Shown here in pieces: positions 1,504 to 12,419 of a stretch of 12,419 nt of DNA. Source of the stretch: Methanobacteriota archaeon (GTDB lineage: Archaea; Thermoplasmatota; Poseidoniia; Poseidoniales; Thalassarchaeaceae); contig PAUH01000031.1 of assembly GCA_002712645.1 (NCBI GenBank), forward strand, positions 15,624 through 28,042. The letters run 5' to 3'. Every line of letters starts with the position of its first letter. Within the stretch, counting starts at the first letter, position 1. The notes beneath the pieces are model-generated. The model did not search any database, was not told the DNA's origin, and worked only from the letters and a program-made list of their open reading frames with translations. The position numbers were made by a program, and so were the translations under genes.

Positions 1504-1519
1504 TCACGCTTCTGCGTGA
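1504..1519. terminator. Inverted repeat at the convergent junction, possible bidirectional terminator
   Basis: A perfect 6-bp stem, TCACGC / GCGTGA, with a 4-base TTCT loop. It contains the stop codon of the GH53 gene (1504-1506, minus) and begins 34 bases after the stop of the acyl-CoA dehydrogenase. There is no T-run following it on either strand, so termination is only suggested by position. Confidence 0.3.
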
Positions 1520-2625
1520 TGATAGCTCAGATTGAACTCCATCAAGACGGGGAGTTCTTTGTTTTCAAAGTTGAAAATGGCCTGGTTTTCCCAGACGGAG
1601 CCGTTTTCAGATTCCGGGCCGTCCCATGAAATCATATCTGCACCCCAATAGCAAAAACCGATACCGCCATCAACATCAAAAATCTGCTTTTTGAGGTCGT
1701 GAAGAAAGGCCCTCTGGCCTTCAGGCGTTGCAGGGTATTCTGGGAAAATCAACTGATTTTCAGAGCCCAGAATATTGTCTGTCCAATCATTCCAACCGAG
1801 AGTGAAGGGGTATGCCGTCTCCGCAATTACGACTTCTTTGCCGGTACTTTTTACTATGTTTTCCAGTACATCCCCAACATTTTCAATTGATTTCCCGTGC
1901 CAGAGAGGGTAGTATGAGATTCCAGCCACGTCGTAATCAATGTGCTTGACCTGATCGAAAAATGATGTCGATGATTCGAGTCCCGCAAAGTGAAGTATTA
2001 TTTTCGCTCTTTCTGAGCTATCCCTCACTCCATTAGATCCCTGTTCAAGAATCTCAAGAAATTGAGTCATATTGTGGTGAATATTGCCATGGGGGAACAA
2101 CATCCCGTTGTTCACTTCGTTTCCTATCTGGATGAAATCTGGGTCAATCTCAGTGACAATATGCCTTGTGTACTCGTAAACCTCGATTTTCAGTTCCTCG
2201 AAATCAAGCGACTCCCATGAAATGGGCGTCTTTTGCTGGCTTGGGTCAGCCCATGTATCGGAATAATGTGGGCATAGCCATATCTTCAGCCCCTTTGATT
2301 TTAGTAAATCGGAGAATTCCGAAACTTGGGCCAAAGAAGAGGGACTGTCGGAGATGTTATTCCATATTCTCAGCCTAACCGTATCGACTCCATTCTGAAT
2401 CAGAGAGTCGATGAAATCAACTTGATCTCCATTCCGATCGAAATAGGTATGATTGAACTCTGATATCAGCGGGTAGTATGAGATATCAACAGCGGAAATC
2501 TTGTTATTAGCGGTCTCGAGTTGATTCTGCGTATCGCCTACCGCATTCTGATCTTCATCACTCACACAGCCCGGCATGATTCCGACGAGGATGATTATCA
2601 CGACGAGCCCCGATCGCCAGATCAT
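1504..2625 (-). CDS. Endo-beta-1,4-galactanase lipoprotein, glycoside hydrolase family 53
   Basis: GH53 enzymes cut beta-1,4-galactan in pectic or algal arabinogalactan. The 373-residue protein opens with MIWRSGL and a hydrophobic stretch ending in a lipobox (GIMPGC, cysteine at 20), so it is probably exported and anchored outside the cell. An acidic linker (about 21-42) leads into the barrel domain. Family landmarks follow: VDISYYP at 46-52, VRLRIWN at 83-89, HYSDTWADP at 120-128, IGNEVNNGM at 167-175 with acid/base E170, ISYYPLWHG at 236-244, and VIAETAYP at 266-273 with nucleophile E269, then YPATPEGQ at 297-304. Length is normal for one catalytic domain and both catalytic glutamates are present. 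The gene lies 41 bases behind HMG-CoA synthase with a TATA-like box of its own in the gap, so it is probably transcribed separately. Beta-1,4-galactan from phytoplankton is a plausible but unproven substrate. Confidence 0.9.
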   Translation of the reverse strand: MIWRSGLVVIIILVGIMPGCVSDEDQNAVGDTQNQLETANNKISAVDISYYPLISEFNHTYFDRNGDQVDFIDSLIQNGVDTVRLRIWNNISDSPSSLAQVSEFSDLLKSKGLKIWLCPHYSDTWADPSQQKTPISWESLDFEELKIEVYEYTRHIVTEIDPDFIQIGNEVNNGMLFPHGNIHHNMTQFLEILEQGSNGVRDSSERAKIILHFAGLESSTSFFDQVKHIDYDVAGISYYPLWHGKSIENVGDVLENIVKSTGKEVVIAETAYPFTLGWNDWTDNILGSENQLIFPEYPATPEGQRAFLHDLKKQIFDVDGGIGFCYWGADMISWDGPESENGSVWENQAIFNFENKELPVLMEFNLSYHHAEA

Positions 2626-2666: not shown

Positions 2667-4220
2667 CTAATTGACCCAGGAGTATCGTCTCTCTCCTTCC
2701 AAATGACCCTCAGCACCTATTGAGATCAGCGCAAATTCTCCTGAAGGCGAAATCACGGATGATCTTCTGGAGCCTCGATGTAGTGCTTCATAGATCGATT
2801 TGTCTATCGGTTGGCGGTCATCGATTCTTGAAAATAATGAAAATCGTGATGCGATGTGTTTCCATTCTGATTGGATTATTCCCTCGAAAACCTTGGCCTT
2901 TGCCCCAGAACCATAGCCGCAGAGCCCTATTCTGCTTCCTTTCATATCTTGATTCTCATTGAAATCGGACTCTAACGCGGACATTAATGCAAGGAATATT
3001 GACCCTGTGTATTGATTTCCGACCATAGAGGATGCTCTCTGGGTCTTCTCAATTCTTTCCTCGACGAACTGTTTGAAATGATCGGTCTTGGATATCTTCC
3101 TGCGGTATCCGTCGTTTGCTGACTCGAAGTCTGAATCGCCTGCTATGCCTTCCGGGAAGTTTGTCCTGACCGGCTCAGGGCCTATCTCAGATTCTATCTC
3201 GTCCCATATGGGGAGATTTCTGCGATCATGGCGAAAGACATCCGGAAACATTCTTTTTGCCTGGAAGGCATATGGGAGATGGACAATTATTCTCGCCCAT
3301 TGATCTGTCAGTATTTTGTCCTCGTCGGGATCGTATCTACCTGCAGACATTGCTTTCGAGCGGAAATTGATGAAAGCATGCTTGACTGATTCCGAGTAAC
3401 ACCTATTGGAAAACGCTCCATCGAAAACGGGAGTATCTTTGTGCACCTTGAGGGTCTCGGATTCGAATAGTGTGTGATCTCTCTTATCCGACTTGTCGAT
3501 CATTCTCATAATCTTCTCAGAGAGATTCTTCCTGAGGTTTTGACCGGCTTCAGAAGCAAGTTCGAGGACCGTATCGACTATTGATCGTCTGGATATCTCT
3601 CTTCTGGGTTTGAAGAAATCATGAACAGGCATGGTGGACACGCCCCATATGTCTGGTATCACGAGAAGTCTTGGATTGTGGCGAATGAGAATTGCTCCTC
3701 CGCCGGCTCCTTGGGTGTATTCTCCAGATGAGCCCAAGTCGTACTTCGCATTATCAGCAAACACTACTATCCCCATTCTATCTTGATCTGGGCCCCCTCT
3801 TGCAACCCAATCCAACGTATTGTGCATGGCATCAACAGCACCAATGCAAGCGAATGTCATGTCTACAACATCACAATTCCTGAAACAGTCGACTCCATAC
3901 TTCTTTGCATACCTCTGTTCGAGCATATCCATGATGTAGGTAGCAGTTGGTTTTGAGCCATCGAGTGCAGATTCGGTCCCAAGATATATCCTACCAATTT
4001 TTCCAGGGTCTATCTTATTCCTGTCGATGACCCTGGCCACAGCATTTGCACCCATTGTCGCAGTATCTTCGTGGACGTCGGGTATGGCCATTGCAGAAAG
4101 GCCCAGGCCTCGGTTCAACTTACCATAATCCGCGCCTCTGAACTCTGCGAAATCCTTGATATCAAAGTAAAGACGGGGTATGTGAATTGCGATATCATCG
4201 ATACCCACTGACTGAACCAT
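2667..4220 (-). CDS. Hydroxymethylglutaryl-CoA synthase, long MvaS type
   Basis: This enzyme condenses acetyl-CoA with acetoacetyl-CoA to HMG-CoA, the entry to the mevalonate pathway for archaeal isoprenoid lipids. All three catalytic residues can be placed: E83 in GTESALDGSKP, C125 in DMTFACIGAVD (acetylated cysteine), and H314 in IIVHLPYAFQAKRMF. Other landmarks are KYDLGSSGEYTQGAGGGA at 159-176, MVGNQYTGSIFLALMSALES at 399-418, GLCGYGSGAKAKVFEG at 432-447 and a C-terminal ERRY. At 517 residues it is longer than the bacterial enzyme (about 390) because of extra sequence between about 190 and 400, including a charged segment at 228-262. It resembles the bacterial/eukaryotic MvaS line rather than the shorter archaeal synthase that works with a thiolase and a DUF35 protein. 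It follows tyrosyl-tRNA synthetase by 80 bases. A role in polyketide beta-branching is possible in principle, but the gene is not next to the synthase. Confidence 0.93.
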   Translation of the reverse strand: MVQSVGIDDIAIHIPRLYFDIKDFAEFRGADYGKLNRGLGLSAMAIPDVHEDTATMGANAVARVIDRNKIDPGKIGRIYLGTESALDGSKPTATYIMDMLEQRYAKKYGVDCFRNCDVVDMTFACIGAVDAMHNTLDWVARGGPDQDRMGIVVFADNAKYDLGSSGEYTQGAGGGAILIRHNPRLLVIPDIWGVSTMPVHDFFKPRREISRRSIVDTVLELASEAGQNLRKNLSEKIMRMIDKSDKRDHTLFESETLKVHKDTPVFDGAFSNRCYSESVKHAFINFRSKAMSAGRYDPDEDKILTDQWARIIVHLPYAFQAKRMFPDVFRHDRRNLPIWDEIESEIGPEPVRTNFPEGIAGDSDFESANDGYRRKISKTDHFKQFVEERIEKTQRASSMVGNQYTGSIFLALMSALESDFNENQDMKGSRIGLCGYGSGAKAKVFEGIIQSEWKHIASRFSLFSRIDDRQPIDKSIYEALHRGSRRSSVISPSGEFALISIGAEGHLEGERRYSWVN

Positions 4221-7201: not shown

Positions 7202-8374
7202 ATGGGATACGAGGCACTCGACTTCTACGATGTTGATTCACTTCTTACAGATGAAGAACGCATGATTCGCGACGTCGTGAGAGACTGGGTGGATGAATCA
7301 GTTATCCCAAAAATAGAGAATGCTTGCAGAGAGGGGGTCTTCCTGGATGAATGGCGCCAGGAGCTTGGTGGCATGGGGATATTGGGGGCCCCATTGAAGG
7401 GGTACGGATGCCCTGGACTTTCTTACACTGCATATGGCGTGATTTGTCGAGAATTGGAAAGAGGAGATAGCGGAATCAGATCCTTCGCAAGTGTGCAAGG
7501 TTCTCTTGCGATGTACCCGATATGGGATTTCGGAAGTGAGGAACAGAAGGAGAAGTATCTGCCCAAGATGGCAAGTGGAGAGCTAATCGGTTGCTTCGGG
7601 TTAACTGAACCAGACTACGGATCGAATCCCGGCGATATGGTGACCAAGGCTGAAGAGGATGATGACCACTATATTCTGAATGGCGCGAAGATGTGGATCA
7701 CAAATGGGACTATTGCTGATCTGGCAGTAGTCTGGGCCAAACTAGACGGAGTCATCAGAGGTTTCATCGTTGAGAAAGGCGATGAGGGTTTCTCTGCACC
7801 AGAGATGAAAGGGAAGCACTCGCTAAAGGCTAGCGTTACATCAGAACTTGTATTCCAAGACTGCAAGATTCCAAAAGATAGGATCCTTCCAGGCGTCAAA
7901 GGGCTCAGAGGGCCGTTTTCATGTCTTAACAATGCTAGATATGGAATCTCATGGGGCGCGGTTGGCGCTGCTCAGTCATGCTTCGACTCAGCCAGAAGCT
8001 ATGCGATGAGTCGGATTCAATTCGATCACCCAATAGCGGCTTACCAGTTGGTGCAGAATAAATTAGCCTGGATGCTTCGTGAAATCACAAAGGCGCAACT
8101 TCTCGCATACCACCTGGGTGTCAAGAAGGATTCAGGAGAATGGGTGCCTGAACACATCTCTCTTGCGAAAATGAACAATGTGGACATAGCTCTCGAAATT
8201 GCACGTGTTGCTAGAGACATCCACGGTGCGAATGGCATACTGGACGAATATCCGGTCATGCGCCACATGGCAAATCTCGAATCTGTAAAGACGTATGAGG
8301 GAACTCACGACATACACAATCTGATACTAGGAAGGCACATAACCGGCATTCAGGCCTTTACGAGAGAAGCCTGA
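7202..8374 (+). CDS. gcdH: Glutaryl-CoA dehydrogenase (decarboxylating)
   Basis: Oxidises and decarboxylates glutaryl-CoA to crotonyl-CoA and CO2 in lysine, tryptophan or aromatic-acid breakdown, giving electrons to ETF. The 390-residue protein follows the human enzyme closely by eye: IKGYGC-like LKGYGCPG at 65-72, RELERGDSGIRS at 83-94 holding E86 and R93 (human E87 and R94, which bind the substrate carboxylate and mark this subfamily), CFGLTEPDYGSNPGDM at 131-146, MWITNG at 164-169, GPFSCLNNARYGISWG at 237-252, and KTYEGTHDIHNLILGR at 363-378 with catalytic base E366 (human E370). The ending TGIQAF is also shared. Nothing is missing or truncated. ETF beta begins 48 bases downstream, so the acceptor is encoded alongside. 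No clear ribosome binding site precedes the ATG. A non-decarboxylating glutaryl-CoA dehydrogenase remains possible. Confidence 0.92.
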   Translation: MGYEALDFYDVDSLLTDEERMIRDVVRDWVDESVIPKIENACREGVFLDEWRQELGGMGILGAPLKGYGCPGLSYTAYGVICRELERGDSGIRSFASVQGSLAMYPIWDFGSEEQKEKYLPKMASGELIGCFGLTEPDYGSNPGDMVTKAEEDDDHYILNGAKMWITNGTIADLAVVWAKLDGVIRGFIVEKGDEGFSAPEMKGKHSLKASVTSELVFQDCKIPKDRILPGVKGLRGPFSCLNNARYGISWGAVGAAQSCFDSARSYAMSRIQFDHPIAAYQLVQNKLAWMLREITKAQLLAYHLGVKKDSGEWVPEHISLAKMNNVDIALEIARVARDIHGANGILDEYPVMRHMANLESVKTYEGTHDIHNLILGRHITGIQAFTREA

Positions 8375-8413
8375 TTCCGTTGTATTGATAGGACTGCTGC
8401 CGGAGCGACGTAT

Positions 8414-8420
8414 GGTGATC
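8414..8420 (+). promoter_or_regulatory. Ribosome binding site for etfB, supports GTG start
   Basis: GGTGATC is complementary to part of the expected archaeal 16S rRNA 3' tail (GGATCACCTCC); its GG lies 7 nt before the GTG at 8423. It supports that start over the out-of-frame ATG at 8412. Confidence 0.45.
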
Positions 8421-8422
8421 GC

Positions 8423-9178
8423 GTGAAGGTAGCCGTCCTAATCAAGCAAGTACCAGACACAACAGCAAGAATTAGCATAGCCGGCGGATCGGTTGACGAG
8501 GGCTCTATATCGAAATGGACAATCAGCCCGTATGACGAATATGCCCTTGAGGCCGCCCTTAAATTGCAAAGCGAATCAGGGGCGAAGGTAGTTGCAATTA
8601 CTCTTGGGCCACAGCGTTCTTCCAAGTCTCTTATCGATGCCGCAGCGGTTGGTGCTGATGAGCTGGTGCACGTATTGTATGAGGGGGATACGGGGTCATT
8701 ATCACTTCAGAGTGCTCTGGCGGCTGCTGTCCGTAAATCAGAAGCGGATATCGTTCTCGCGGGCAAGCAAGCAGCAGACACTAACTCTGGCTCTACAGCA
8801 CCAGGAGTTGCACAGATGCTTGGCCTTCCCTGTGTGGGTCTTGTCTCGGAGGTAAAGGCGGTTGACGGCAACTTCGTGGCAACTCGATCGACTTCCTCAG
8901 GCATGGAACGTGTTTCGGTGAATGGCCCATGCGTATTTGCATTCGACAAAGGCGATGAAGAGCTACGAAGGCCGAATGTGAGAGGCATCATGATGGCTAA
9001 AAAGAAGCCGATAGAGTCGCTATCCCCTGCTGATCTTGGTGTTTCAATGGAAGATGGCGGCGTGAATGTTGAATCAGTCGGATACCCTCCAGAGAAGCCT
9101 GTCGGGCAGACATTCCAGGGTGCGGCTTCTGCCTCTGAAGTCGTAACCAAACTGAGAGAAGAGGCCAACGTAATCTGA
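8423..9178 (+). CDS. etfB: Electron transfer flavoprotein beta subunit
   Basis: Beta subunit of the soluble ETF heterodimer, which accepts electrons from acyl-CoA dehydrogenases; this subunit binds AMP and carries the dehydrogenase docking loop. Translation starts at GTG and gives 251 residues, normal for the family. The N-terminus MKVAVLIKQVPDT is diagnostic, followed by ISPYDEYALEAAL (34-46), the ADIVLAGKQAADTNSG stretch (about 109-124) and LPCVGLVSEV. Near 185-200, LRRPNVRGIMMAKKKP corresponds to the loop that binds partner dehydrogenases. It lies 48 bases after gcdH and 12 before etfA. Whether the ETF is an ordinary or an electron-bifurcating type cannot be settled by eye; the gcdH neighbour suggests ordinary. 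No membrane ETF:quinone oxidoreductase gene is in the window. Confidence 0.95.
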   Translation: MKVAVLIKQVPDTTARISIAGGSVDEGSISKWTISPYDEYALEAALKLQSESGAKVVAITLGPQRSSKSLIDAAAVGADELVHVLYEGDTGSLSLQSALAAAVRKSEADIVLAGKQAADTNSGSTAPGVAQMLGLPCVGLVSEVKAVDGNFVATRSTSSGMERVSVNGPCVFAFDKGDEELRRPNVRGIMMAKKKPIESLSPADLGVSMEDGGVNVESVGYPPEKPVGQTFQGAASASEVVTKLREEANVI

Positions 9179-9184
9179 GGAGGT
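9179..9184 (+). promoter_or_regulatory. Ribosome binding site for etfA
   Basis: A strong GGAGGT, beginning right after the etfB stop codon and 6 nt before the ATG at 9191. It sets the etfA start over the out-of-frame ATG at 9186. Confidence 0.8.
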
Positions 9185-9190
9185 CATGAC

Positions 9191-10108
9191 ATGAGTGTAA
9201 CAATCGTTTCAGAACCGCATGAAGAAGGAATGCATCCGACCTTGCCGCAATTGGTGAGGGCGGCATCGATAATCGGTGAATCATGTACTGTGATTATACC
9301 TGGTGGAAATGGTGCCGATGAAGCATCGAAAATACAGGGTGTTGAGAAGGTCATAAAACTCAATGGAGACTGCTTCTCAGTATTCGATTCATCGGCATGG
9401 TCAGCAGCAATATCCGGTCTTGTCGATGGTACTGTTCTGATGGCTACTACTCCCATGGGGAGGGAGCTTTCAGCGAGCATCGCAGCAGGTCTTGGACGTT
9501 CAGTTGTCCAGGATGTGACTTCGATAGCCCCGGGCATAAAGGTCGAGAGGCCCGCCTACTCCGGCAAGGCTGTGGAAAGTATCTCCGTGAGTGGCGATGC
9601 AGTCATTACGATCCGTCCGAACGCAATTGAATCAGCGGAATCGGGGGGTTCAGCGGATGTTTCGACGGTTGACTCCGGGGAGAACTTGAAGATTGCAATC
9701 TTAGAAGCCATTGCCAAGGCAGGAGAACGTCTCGACGTCTCTGAGGCTGATATCATAATTTCCGGGGGAAGGGGCCTTGGAGATCGATCTAATTTTGAAA
9801 AACTGGAATCTGTTGCTGATTCTCTCGGTGCCGCGGTGGGTGCTAGTCGCGCAGTTGTGGACGAATGGGGCCTTCCTCACAGTATGCAAGTTGGCCAAAC
9901 GGGGAAGACCGTCACCCCATCCCTCTACATTGCAGTCGGAATATCTGGTGCGATTCAGCATCTAGCCGGTATGCGATCAAGCAGATACATTCTCGCAATC
10001 AACAAGGATCCCGAGGCACCTATCTTCGGTGTTGCCGACTATGGAATCGTTGCTCAGTGGGAAGACGCGCTGCCAATCCTACATGAGGCCATCAAGTCTC
10101 TTCCGTGA
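9191..10108 (+). CDS. etfA: Electron transfer flavoprotein alpha subunit
   Basis: Alpha subunit of ETF; it binds the redox-active FAD and pairs with the etfB product. The 305 residues divide into an N-terminal alpha/beta domain (1 to about 170) and a C-terminal FAD domain (about 185-305). FAD-domain landmarks are SGGRGLGD at 191-198, GASRAVVDEWGLPHSMQVGQ at 217-236, TGKTV at 237-241, YIAVGISGAIQH at 246-257, INKDPEAPIF at 270-279 and VADYGIV at 281-287, all in the usual order. Length is close to typical (about 310-320). It forms a tight pair with etfB, and its last 17 bases overlap the 3' end of the phosphopantetheinyl transferase gene on the other strand. The overlap may matter for transcription ending; see the inverted repeat at the stop codon. 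Confidence 0.95.
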   Translation: MSVTIVSEPHEEGMHPTLPQLVRAASIIGESCTVIIPGGNGADEASKIQGVEKVIKLNGDCFSVFDSSAWSAAISGLVDGTVLMATTPMGRELSASIAAGLGRSVVQDVTSIAPGIKVERPAYSGKAVESISVSGDAVITIRPNAIESAESGGSADVSTVDSGENLKIAILEAIAKAGERLDVSEADIIISGGRGLGDRSNFEKLESVADSLGAAVGASRAVVDEWGLPHSMQVGQTGKTVTPSLYIAVGISGAIQHLAGMRSSRYILAINKDPEAPIFGVADYGIVAQWEDALPILHEAIKSLP

Positions 10109-10718
10109 TCCTCGAAGCGATCACGGCGATGTGGTCTACGTCAGAGATTTTGACATCGTGGCTGTTTATCGACCATCTTGATCCCATGGCCGTCCATGAT
10201 TTTCCATCATGTGTGATATCCTTCGAAATTGACATGCCAATACCGAGGGCTTTCGAAATAGCTTCTTTCGACATCCATATCCGGAGTCTTGAGTGCTCGT
10301 CATGAACATCATTTTGTTCCTCTTCATTCAATATCAAATTAAATGCCCCCTGGGATACTTTCCGATTTCTAGGTTCCAAATCCACCCCCACGGGCATATC
10401 GGAGGGTGCTACCACAGCTACAGCCCCATAATCAGAATGAGATATGCTACATCTCGCAAAGATTCGACCATCACGAACCAGACAACCGCCCATGTCAGGC
10501 ACTATTTGCAAAGTGTCTCCATCTCTAGACTGTGAAATTTTTGAAAGGGCGTGTCTCCCTGAAATATGGTGTAATCTTCTTTTGGGGCTCCTAGAAGCCA
10601 TTATTTTCGGATCTAGGAGAGGAGGGTTGTTTGTATCTTCAGAATGAGCAGAATGCTCCACAAAATGAATCGTGAATGATTTTTGACTTGATACGATCTT
10701 TGAGGCATTGTGGAGCAT
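10092..10718 (-). CDS. 4'-phosphopantetheinyl transferase, Sfp type
   Basis: Transfers the phosphopantetheine arm of CoA to a serine of acyl- or peptidyl-carrier domains. The 208-residue protein shows the family motifs in order: ISGRHAL at 52-58 (the GRxA region), SISHSDYGAVAVVA at 91-104 with H94, VGVDLEPR at 110-117 with metal ligands D113 and E115, and WMSKEAISKALG at 148-159 with E152 (the WxxKEA motif). Length fits the Sfp/PfaE class. Its start lies 5 bases after the stop of the synthase gene, with GGAG 8 nt before the ATG formed by the last synthase codons, so the two are probably translationally coupled and the synthase's carrier domains are its likely substrate. The first 35 residues look poorly ordered; M40 is a less likely alternative start. 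Its 3' end overlaps etfA by 17 bases, tail to tail. Confidence 0.88.
   Translation of the reverse strand: MLHNASKIVSSQKSFTIHFVEHSAHSEDTNNPPLLDPKIMASRSPKRRLHHISGRHALSKISQSRDGDTLQIVPDMGGCLVRDGRIFARCSISHSDYGAVAVVAPSDMPVGVDLEPRNRKVSQGAFNLILNEEEQNDVHDEHSRLRIWMSKEAISKALGIGMSISKDITHDGKSWTAMGSRWSINSHDVKISDVDHIAVIASRITEET
10103..10126. terminator. Inverted repeat at the etfA / PPTase tail overlap
   Basis: A perfect 8-bp stem, CCGTGATC (10103-10110) and GATCACGG (10119-10126), with an 8-base loop. The left arm contains the etfA stop codon (10106-10108); the whole repeat lies inside the 3' coding end of the PPTase. It could end transcription from both sides, but there is no T-run. Confidence 0.35.
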
Positions 10719-10723
10719 ATTCC

Positions 10724-12419
10724 CTACTCCGCGTCTATCAAACCTGGGCGCTCGCTAGCATCCAGGGTAGCCATTGATTTCATCATAAGACCATCAATTT
10801 TGAGCACGGGGGTGCCATCGAGTCTTATTACTGAATCGTGGAGAGTGGAAGAATCGGGTGAAGACCCGATCCTGACGGACAAGACGGTTAACGAACCGTC
10901 TGAAATCTCGTCTGACAGGACTATCCTGCGTGCACCCACGGGGAGAGAGTCAACACCATCGATATCCATTGATGTTAGACCAGCCGCCTGAAAACATGAT
11001 TCAATGAGCATCGGGTATGCTATCATTGTAGGTTGTTTTTCACCCGCTCCACTGTTGAATAATTCTGGATTGGGGATGTCCCTGATATCGTGCACACGTG
11101 CTTCAATTCCTCGGCCATTTTCATTCTGAATAGATGCTACCACTCCAATCAGAGGTTGGAATCTTGGCCCATGGAACATACGGTTGTAGATATCTGCTGA
11201 GGCAAGGATTCTTGATCCATCTTCTTCCTCAGGGATAATGTCAGGAATTGATTCAATTCCCATAGAAGGGCGCAATATTGCAATGGCCTTGTGATGGATT
11301 ATCGATTGTCCGAGCCCTCCGGGGGCCATGGACTCTATGGTGCAAGAAAATGCAATTTCAGCACCATCGTGCTGAATGGATTCAACAGCACAACGAATTT
11401 CCTTGGTCCCTCTTGTGATTTTCACGGGTATTCCGAATTCAACATTCTCGAATCTGACAACTTTGCCATTATTTGAACACAGACTAACGGTCTCAGCCAT
11501 CATTTCGAGAGCCATTACCCCTGGAAAGTATGGCACTCCAGATATTGAGTGGTCTTTGAGATATGTGTGCGAATCCGGATCCAGATCGATAGAGGTGACT
11601 GCCTTCATGCCGATATCGCATTTGAGGATCTGCTGAATCATCGGGAAGGTAAGAGGGTCACCATAATCAGAAGATGCACTCGGAGACAGATGGACTTCCT
11701 TTTCTCTTACTGATTTTCTGTGATCTAAAGTACCCATTTTTCCTGCGATAAGGACTGGCGTGCCTGCTGATCCCAATACCTCTTCAACGAACATACGGGC
11801 ACCGTCGTCGACGGGTATCATGTCCACTCCTGCACGATCGAATACAGTTTCCAGCGATCCCCTTGTAGCCATCCCCGCACCGGCCCAAGGCGACCAAGCA
11901 ATTGAGATTGAGACCATGTTTTCCGAGGATATCCTGGCATGTTCGGCATCCAATATCCTGTTCGCTGCACAATAGTCTAGTTGGGCTGCATTGCCCAATC
12001 TTCCGGCTACGGACGTGAATGAACATGCGAATCTAACCGGCTGCTTTCTCGAAGATAGCGAACCGTAAATCGACAGCCAGCCCCCTACTTTTACGCCCAT
12101 GACCTTCTGTACGGTTTCATCTGACTTTGAATCGAAAGGTGTGGAGTCCTCAATGCCTGCGCCATGCACTATACCAGTTATAGGCCCGTAATTGCCGATG
12201 ATTGAGTCGATCGCTGTATCAACAGACGTCCTTGATGTGACATCCACTGAGACGTATTCTGCGATGGCTCCGGCAGCTCTGAGTCTCGAAAGGGTAGAAT
12301 GAATCCCAATGGCCCGTTTCTTAGATTGCCAAGCATCGTCCCACTGCTTTAGAGTGACTTTCCCAGAACTACTGATTGAATCTAGATGCTGCTTCAATTG
12401 GTTCTTCTCATCTTCCATG
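10724..12419 (-). CDS. PfaA-like iterative type I polyketide/PUFA synthase, C-terminal part (KR-DH)
   Basis: The 3' part of a large multidomain synthase; the 5' part lies beyond the right edge. The ATG at 12418 lies inside the ketoreductase, so it is not the start (numbering below uses it). The KR domain spans about 1-230: the nucleotide-binding TGGxxG is off the edge, but the helical insertion typical of PfaA and enediyne-type KRs is seen at 1-45, then VEY-like AEYVSVDV (53-60), GIVHGAGI (82-89), K110, S136 in FTSVAG, Y149 and N153 in DYCAAN, a complete KR catalytic set. A PS-DH (hot-dog) domain covers about 255-545: H290 in DHSISGVPYFPG, FHGPRFQPL at 415-423, and E473 in LIESCFQAAG, where most PKS dehydratases have Asp. 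The end follows at 564. KR-DH at the C-terminus matches PfaA of PUFA synthases. KS, AT and carrier domains are expected upstream but not seen. Coupled to the PPTase gene. Confidence 0.85.
   Translation of the reverse strand, partial: MEDEKNQLKQHLDSISSSGKVTLKQWDDAWQSKKRAIGIHSTLSRLRAAGAIAEYVSVDVTSRTSVDTAIDSIIGNYGPITGIVHGAGIEDSTPFDSKSDETVQKVMGVKVGGWLSIYGSLSSRKQPVRFACSFTSVAGRLGNAAQLDYCAANRILDAEHARISSENMVSISIAWSPWAGAGMATRGSLETVFDRAGVDMIPVDDGARMFVEEVLGSAGTPVLIAGKMGTLDHRKSVREKEVHLSPSASSDYGDPLTFPMIQQILKCDIGMKAVTSIDLDPDSHTYLKDHSISGVPYFPGVMALEMMAETVSLCSNNGKVVRFENVEFGIPVKITRGTKEIRCAVESIQHDGAEIAFSCTIESMAPGGLGQSIIHHKAIAILRPSMGIESIPDIIPEEEDGSRILASADIYNRMFHGPRFQPLIGVVASIQNENGRGIEARVHDIRDIPNPELFNSGAGEKQPTMIAYPMLIESCFQAAGLTSMDIDGVDSLPVGARRIVLSDEISDGSLTVLSVRIGSSPDSSTLHDSVIRLDGTPVLKIDGLMMKSMATLDASERPGLIDAE
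10727..10730 (-). promoter_or_regulatory. Ribosome binding site of the PPTase gene
   Basis: Minus-strand GGAG within the last sense codons of the synthase, 8 nt before the PPTase ATG; favours that start and coupling of the two genes. Confidence 0.5.

What the first reader, a model, noticed from the sequence alone, without database searches (positions are those of the whole stretch)
10092..12419. PUFA-synthase-like megasynthase with dedicated PPTase in an archaeal genome
Seen: a KR domain with the insertion characteristic of PfaA-type synthases, then a hot-dog DH and, 5 bases later, a Sfp-type PPTase with an SD inside the synthase's last codons. Known: this domain order and partner match PfaA plus PfaE of bacterial secondary-lipid synthases. 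Inference: this organism makes a fatty-acyl or polyketide chain by an iterative type I route, although archaeal membranes are isoprenoid. It might be a storage lipid, a signal or defence compound, or a lipid cap on a surface glycan. This is the best candidate here for an undescribed system.
Basis: partly seen in the sequence, partly recalled or inferred. Interest (0 to 1): 0.8.

Follow-up and report, generated by a model that had tools for sequence, protein, structure and literature searches.

The report
Archaeal fatty-acid megasynthase with threonine carriers
Uncultured ocean archaea carry a compact three-gene fatty-acid-making machine of bacterial type, and in most of those that have it the carrier domains show threonine where textbook carriers have an indispensable serine.

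Summary
The window cuts the 3' end of a 2705-aa synthase (KS-AT-KS2-ACPx2-KR-DH), preceded by a FabI-type reductase and followed by a PPTase. It belongs to Marine Group II archaea: 43 of 60 genomes (own and 59 relatives) and 179 of 292 class genomes match; reductase-synthase-PPTase order holds in 22 of 22 loci examined. It is PfaA-like, not a strict PUFA synthase: TIGR02813 stays under cut-off, PfaD is absent, the DH is fused. All ACPs found lie in the synthase; the 17 genomes without it show neither ACP nor PPTase. Most synthases have Thr, not Ser, at the phosphopantetheine site: Thr motif in 145 genomes, Ser in 21, both only in the contaminated window genome. The window's own synthase has Ser. 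Sampled bacterial relatives mostly have Thr. Ser-to-Thr inactivates E. coli ACP (PMC3340395), yet the one measurable Thr pair is under purifying selection. Best reading: an iterative type I fatty-acid synthase of bacterial descent using Thr-linked phosphopantetheine; product and Thr attachment are inferred. It bears on the unsolved lipids of these archaea.

The parts
10092..10718 (-). PPTase, 208 aa
   Evidence: PF01648 33.1 bits, cut-off 25; a PPTase follows the synthase in 22 of 22 loci examined
10727..10730 (-). Shine-Dalgarno-like GGAG inside the synthase's last codons, 8 bases before the PPTase ATG
   Evidence: sequence read directly
10724..12419 (-). C-terminal part of the 2705-aa synthase; it continues beyond the window to G000:C38:34464
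11882..12298 (-). Ketoreductase domain (KR), Ser/Tyr/Asn motif present
   Evidence: PF08659 91.2 bits, residues 2182-2320 of the synthase; motif alignment of 22 synthases
11360..11605 (-). Dehydratase, first hot-dog, conserved His
   Evidence: PF21089 35.1 bits, residues 2413-2494
10772..11182 (-). Dehydratase, second hot-dog, conserved ExxFQ
   Evidence: PF14765 25.1 bits, residues 2554-2690

Best explanation
Three genes (FabI-type enoyl reductase, KS-AT-KS2-ACPn-KR-DH megasynthase, PPTase) form a self-contained iterative type I fatty-acid synthase of Poseidoniales. The PPTase puts phosphopantetheine on the tandem ACPs. The AT loads malonyl units, KS condenses, KR reduces, DH dehydrates and the partner reductase reduces the enoyl bond. 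The chain leaves without a built-in thioesterase, probably by transfer to a separate acyltransferase. The unit descends from bacterial PfaA-like synthases, and in most of these archaea Thr takes the phosphopantetheine instead of Ser. Shown here: domains, motifs, gene order, co-occurrence, Thr/Ser states, purifying selection in the pairs measured. Inferred: catalysis, full reduction, malonyl specificity, Thr attachment, and that the product is a fatty acyl chain for membrane or other lipids. The confidence is for the fatty-acid-synthase part; the odds of Thr attachment are given in the section on the most novel reading.
For: Domains and order. In 22 aligned synthases the catalytic motifs of KS1 and KS2 (Cys-His-His), AT (GHSLG, HAFH), KR and DH hold, apart from one KS1 His that reads X in the window's own synthase because the assembly has an N. 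Reductase Tyr-x6-Lys in 22 of 22. Reductase-synthase-PPTase order in 22 of 22 loci. PF01648: 36 of the 59 relatives have exactly one match (35 over cut-off); coordinates put 34 of these beside the synthase and two near the start of another contig; the 17 genomes without synthase have none. PF00550: matches in 39 of 60 genomes, all in frames of 991 aa or more that one search identifies as synthase, none in the 17. Thr aligns with Ser of solved ACPs in the five printed alignments. With any residue allowed at the site, only Ser or Thr was met in the loci read. On the synthase tree the Ser state needs at least two changes; no bootstrap tree of 200 makes do with one. dN/dS 0.054 in one Thr pair, 0.086-0.092 in three Ser pairs.
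Against: No biochemistry. Ser-to-Thr is a null in E. coli ACP (PMC3340395, passages) and is reported so for spinach ACP-I (PMC9310384, one passage). PF01553 acyltransferases occur in 60 of 60 genomes, with or without synthase, so they do not tie the product to phospholipid. Six of eleven f1 genera lack the synthase, so it is not indispensable in the order. A lipid survey of waters rich in these archaea saw no unusual polar lipids (PMC6962369, passages). Malonyl-CoA supply and a releasing enzyme were not searched. Genomes are incomplete, so single absences are weak; six synthase-bearing genomes had no PF01648 match.
Confidence: 0.7

Rival explanations
1. Same synthase, but it makes a specialised product (signal, defence compound, pigment or surface lipid), not bulk fatty acid.
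For: PfaA-type synthases in bacteria make secondary lipids (recalled); patchy presence in family f1; no thioesterase domain in the three synthases scanned.
Against: A full FAS reaction set with a FabI-type reductase, and no tailoring gene kept beside it in the 22 loci; present in 23 of 23 f2 genomes; the genome's only ACP system found.
Confidence: 0.2
2. Thr ACPs are not phosphopantetheinylated; the Thr-type synthases are inactive or work through another residue.
For: E. coli ACP(S36T) is described as unmodifiable and non-functional (PMC3340395); the PPTases known to me act on Ser (recalled).
Against: In the synthases read, every ACP found in one chain has the same state, Thr or Ser; the PPTase is kept beside Thr synthases; dN/dS is 0.054 in the one Thr pair that could be measured well; the residues with a conserved hydroxyl are the same columns in both classes.
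Confidence: 0.2
3. The locus is contamination in the archaeal assembly.
For: The assembly is 6.3% contaminated; a second synthase on contig C7 looks foreign (pieces 98-99% identical in G055 of family f2; a neighbour gene has a second copy on C31), and two extra PPTase matches lie on C23 and C46.
Against: The window's own unit has orthologues in the same order in six other genomes of its genus, and the 34 archaeal synthases of the tree form one clade apart from 38 bacterial ones.
Confidence: 0.02

Closest known systems
PfaA and the Pfa (PUFA synthase) system, TIGR02813
   Same: KS-AT, tandem ACPs, KR with an apparent insert; partner PPTase; best NCBIfam model (876.9 bits for the C7 copy, 613.9 for the window's N-rich copy)
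   Different: Below the cut-off of 1010.1; second KS and DH in the same chain; no PfaD over cut-off in 40 genomes; FabI-type reductase; Thr at the ACP site in most members
Bacterial PfaA-like synthases with GIDTVKQAE ACPs (Myxococcota, Acidobacteriota, Chloroflexota, Elusimicrobiota and others)
   Same: KS-AT-KS2-ACPn-KR-DH in order in seven stretches (L099, L103, L108, L111, L127, L139, L179); Thr ACPs; a PPTase match after the DH in six (L084, L101, L143, L164, L170, L173); L091 has a FabI-type reductase 51% identical before the KS
   Different: Archaeal members form a separate clade (SH-aLRT 100); some bacterial ones (L098, L108, L133) have an ACP with intact Thr motif between AT and KS2, where the archaeal chains have at most a degenerate one
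Animal and fungal type I FAS, and bacterial type II FAS (recalled, not compared here)
   Same: Same reaction set; FabI-type enoyl reductase as in type II
   Different: Different domain order; reductase separate; no thioesterase found; two KS domains

Membership tests
Pfa PUFA synthase | PfaA score over the curated cut-off (TIGR02813) | tested here: not met
   876.9 and 613.9 bits against 1010.1, two synthases scanned
Pfa PUFA synthase | KS-AT-tandem ACP-KR in one chain | tested here: met
   Present, but with a second KS between AT and ACPs
Pfa PUFA synthase | PfaD enoyl reductase (TIGR02814) | tested here: not met
   0 of 40 genomes over cut-off; 9 of 40 have weak partial matches of 16.8-18.9 bits
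Pfa PUFA synthase | Separate PfaB and PfaC genes | tested here: inconclusive
   No such neighbour in 22 loci; in the window's genome KS (PF00109) matches outside the two synthases are one partial match on C3; AT not searched genome-wide
Pfa PUFA synthase | Partner PPTase (PfaE type) | tested here: met
   A PPTase follows the synthase in 22 of 22 loci
Iterative type I fatty-acid synthase (works like) | Complete KS, AT, ACP, KR, DH, ER set | tested here: met
Iterative type I fatty-acid synthase (works like) | Makes saturated fatty acyl chains | not testable with these tools
   needs reconstitution
Canonical acyl carrier proteins | Ser at the phosphopantetheine site | tested here: not met
   Thr motif in 145 of the 165 genomes with either motif; Ser in 21 by subtraction, letters seen in 13 of these. 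The window's own synthase has Ser, so it meets the feature itself
Canonical acyl carrier proteins | PF00550 match | tested here: met
   39 of 60 genomes over cut-off; Thr aligned to Ser of solved ACPs

The most novel reading that the evidence does not exclude
Phosphopantetheine is carried on threonine, not serine, in the only ACPs found in most synthase-bearing Poseidoniales and in a broad family of bacterial PfaA-like synthases, served by PPTases that accept threonine. This would be a second natural attachment residue for the cofactor, in an archaeal fatty-acid synthase that supplies acyl chains to the lipids of abundant ocean archaea.
Probability: 0.6. Interest if true: 0.88.

Novelty: new variant of a known kind. 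Interest (0 to 1): 0.76.

Why it matters
Which lipids Marine Group II archaea make is an open question: a survey concluded that they do not make any known archaeal lipid, and earlier genome work is cited there for a 'putative' fatty-acid pathway (PMC6962369, passages). This report names a set of genes, shows that they come and go as a unit, and shows which genera have or lack them, so the question becomes testable by expression and by comparing genera. Threonine carriers would break the rule that the cofactor sits on serine.

Tried and rejected
Co-switch idea: the PPTase clusters c9 and c6 matched Ser and Thr in 22 of 22 loci. Genus g20 refuted it: Ser ACPs with PPTases scoring nearer to the c6 query (67.8-83.4 bits) than to the c9 query (23.8-34.5) in three loci. 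Dropped.

PF01553 acyltransferase as a marker: in 60 of 60 genomes, so it does not follow the synthase. Genomes with three or more PF01553 matches: 26 of 34 synthase-bearing ones outside genus g1, 0 of 9 in g1, 0 of 17 without synthase. Kept as a lead only.

AlphaFold of the window's PPTase: mean pLDDT 38.2, unusable; no fold search was run.

Contamination as the explanation of the locus: rejected for contig C38, accepted for the second synthase on C7.

Literature: the rows listed by searches showed no title on this synthase or on Thr-linked phosphopantetheine. Several searches held more papers than were listed (16: 30 of 210; 20: 25 of 39; 46: 20 of 1,123), and the library lacks most subscription papers. 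Villanueva et al. 2017 is known to me here only through papers that cite it.
Full report
What is there. The window is G000:C38:15624-28042 of a 1.55 Mb assembly in 46 contigs, 86.7% complete and 6.3% contaminated. Its right edge cuts a synthase that reads on to 2705 aa: KS, AT, a second KS, two ACPs, KR and a double hot-dog DH. An SDR-type reductase precedes it (PF13561, 155.3 bits; its counterpart on C7 scores best against NCBIfam FabI models, below their cut-offs) and a PPTase follows. The cleaner orthologue L045 gives the same domains, most at higher scores.

Whose it is. With the synthase of contig C7 as query, 43 of 60 genomes matched (the window's own and 59 relatives); in the class 179 of 292. 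Named database entries among the 120 listed matches are Candidatus Poseidoniales, Poseidoniaceae, Poseidonia sp. or Euryarchaeota. Family f2 (genomes near 2 Mb) is therefore probably Poseidoniaceae and f1 the other family of the order; that naming is inference. In one search all 23 f2 genomes and 5 of 11 f1 genera have it; g4, g6, g7, g9, g10 and g11 (15 genomes) do not, nor do 2 of the 11 genomes of genus g1. None of the 21 genomes of a third family in the class is among the matching rows, and none has the ACP motif.

Contamination. The second synthase (C7) is probably not the organism's own: pieces 98-99% identical lie in G055 of family f2, and a neighbour gene has a second copy on C31, 43% identical to it. 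The window's own unit is seen in the same order in six other genomes of the genus.

The unit. Twenty-two loci were examined: G000's two and twenty chosen among relatives for a complete synthase on a long contig. All show reductase, synthase, PPTase in that order on one strand, close together. In g3 and g8 (three loci) the unit lies between a conserved block (c3, a TBP-family gene c4, and c5) and an ABC transporter c26; g8 has one more ORF before c26. In g5 and f2 the block before the unit is the same and the genes after it differ. Thirteen stretches were fetched at this place from genomes without the unit there. In 11, c5 and c26 lie 28 to 462 bases apart, too close for the unit: one each from g4, g6, g9 and g11, two from g10, five from g1. 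Two were uninformative (a contig end; the third family). g7 was not examined at this place. In g1, including the window's genome, the old place is empty and the unit sits elsewhere, tail to tail with ETF genes. So the three genes appear to be lost and moved together.

Carrier system. PF01648 matches in 37 of 60 genomes, and in none of the four archaeal control genomes. Leaving out the contaminated G000 (four matches), 36 have exactly one; by coordinates 34 lie next to the synthase and two (G022, G045) near the start of another contig. Six synthase-bearing genomes had no match; in three of them (G002, G006, G010) an adjacent PPTase ORF is present but diverged, and the other three were not followed up. 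None of the 17 synthase-less genomes has one. PF00550 matches in 39 of 60, always in synthase frames, none in the 17; one archaeal control, Methanosarcina acetivorans, has a match. G037, one contig of 2.06 Mb, has three ACPs, all Thr, and one PPTase match.

Threonine. Of the 22 synthases, 9 carry GIDSIKQ in both ACPs (g1 and g8, including the window's own) and 13 carry GIDTVKQ in all 2-4 ACPs. The Thr aligns with the phosphopantetheine Ser of solved ACPs. In 292 class genomes a DNA pattern for the Thr motif is found in 145 and a pattern for Thr or Ser in 165. By subtraction Ser occurs in 21 genomes: 8 of g1, 9 of g8 and, in the other family, 4 of g20; letters were seen in 13 of them. The wider pattern would also admit Cys, Arg or Trp codons, and exact patterns miss variants. 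Read side by side, the two tables show both states only in G000, through C7. In 85 copies read, codons are ACN or TCN, one base apart. On the KS-AT tree of 34 archaeal synthases Ser needs at least two changes. Columns with a conserved Ser, Thr, Cys or Tyr are the same in 60 Thr and 25 Ser copies. Selection is purifying: dN/dS 0.054 for one Thr pair with unsaturated dS, 0.086-0.092 for three Ser pairs; the other five pairs tried were saturated or undefined. Thus Ser and Thr seem interchangeable here, although E. coli ACP(S36T) is described as unmodifiable (PMC3340395, passages) and a spinach Ser-to-Thr ACP as inactive (PMC9310384, one passage).

Bacterial origin. Seven of the stretches (at most 8 kb each) show all six domains in the archaeal order; six have a PPTase match after the DH, and L091 has a FabI-type reductase 51% identical before the KS (which printed 70 of 117). 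For the tree, 38 of the 117 gave a usable KS-AT piece; the 34 archaeal rows form one side of a branch with SH-aLRT 100. The bacterial sample was chosen by the ACP motif and is not a census; no Pfa, HglE or enediyne reference was put in the tree, and the direction of change between Ser and Thr is not shown.

Mechanism. See the best explanation. The HAFH motif of the AT suggests malonyl units, and the Glu in the DH resembles FabZ (motif meanings recalled). A weak ACP match between AT and KS2 occurs in two g1 genomes, G000 and G005; my reading finds no Ser or Thr at its acceptor place.

Known background. PMC6962369, PMC6461757, PMC6336850, PMC9723583, PMC9385802 and PMC7852524 were read as passages only. 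[quoted passage not shown] None of the passages seen describes this megasynthase.

Noticed in passing
G000:C7 (L008), C23, C46: A complete second synthase unit on C7 is probably contamination from a Poseidoniales genome of family f2; two further PPTase matches on C23 and C46 may be foreign contigs as well.
   Followed up: partly
window 7202-10108: Acyl-CoA dehydrogenase and both ETF subunits (PF00441, PF01012, PF00766) lie tail to tail with the PPTase, overlapping it by 17 bases: beta-oxidation genes beside a fatty-acid synthase.
   Followed up: partly
window 1504-2625: Glycoside hydrolase family 53 (PF07745, 263.4 bits) with a lipoprotein-like start (my reading).
   Followed up: no
window 2667-4220: HMG-CoA synthase (PF01154, PF08540) of the mevalonate route.
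   Followed up: no
L223:1311-2912 (G037): A 533-aa PF01553 acyltransferase; genomes with three or more PF01553 matches are all synthase-bearing and outside genus g1 (26 of 34): possible acceptor of the chain.
   Followed up: partly
L053:2784-4652: ABC transporter with membrane and ATPase parts in one chain downstream of the unit in g3 and g8; also present where the unit is missing.
   Followed up: no
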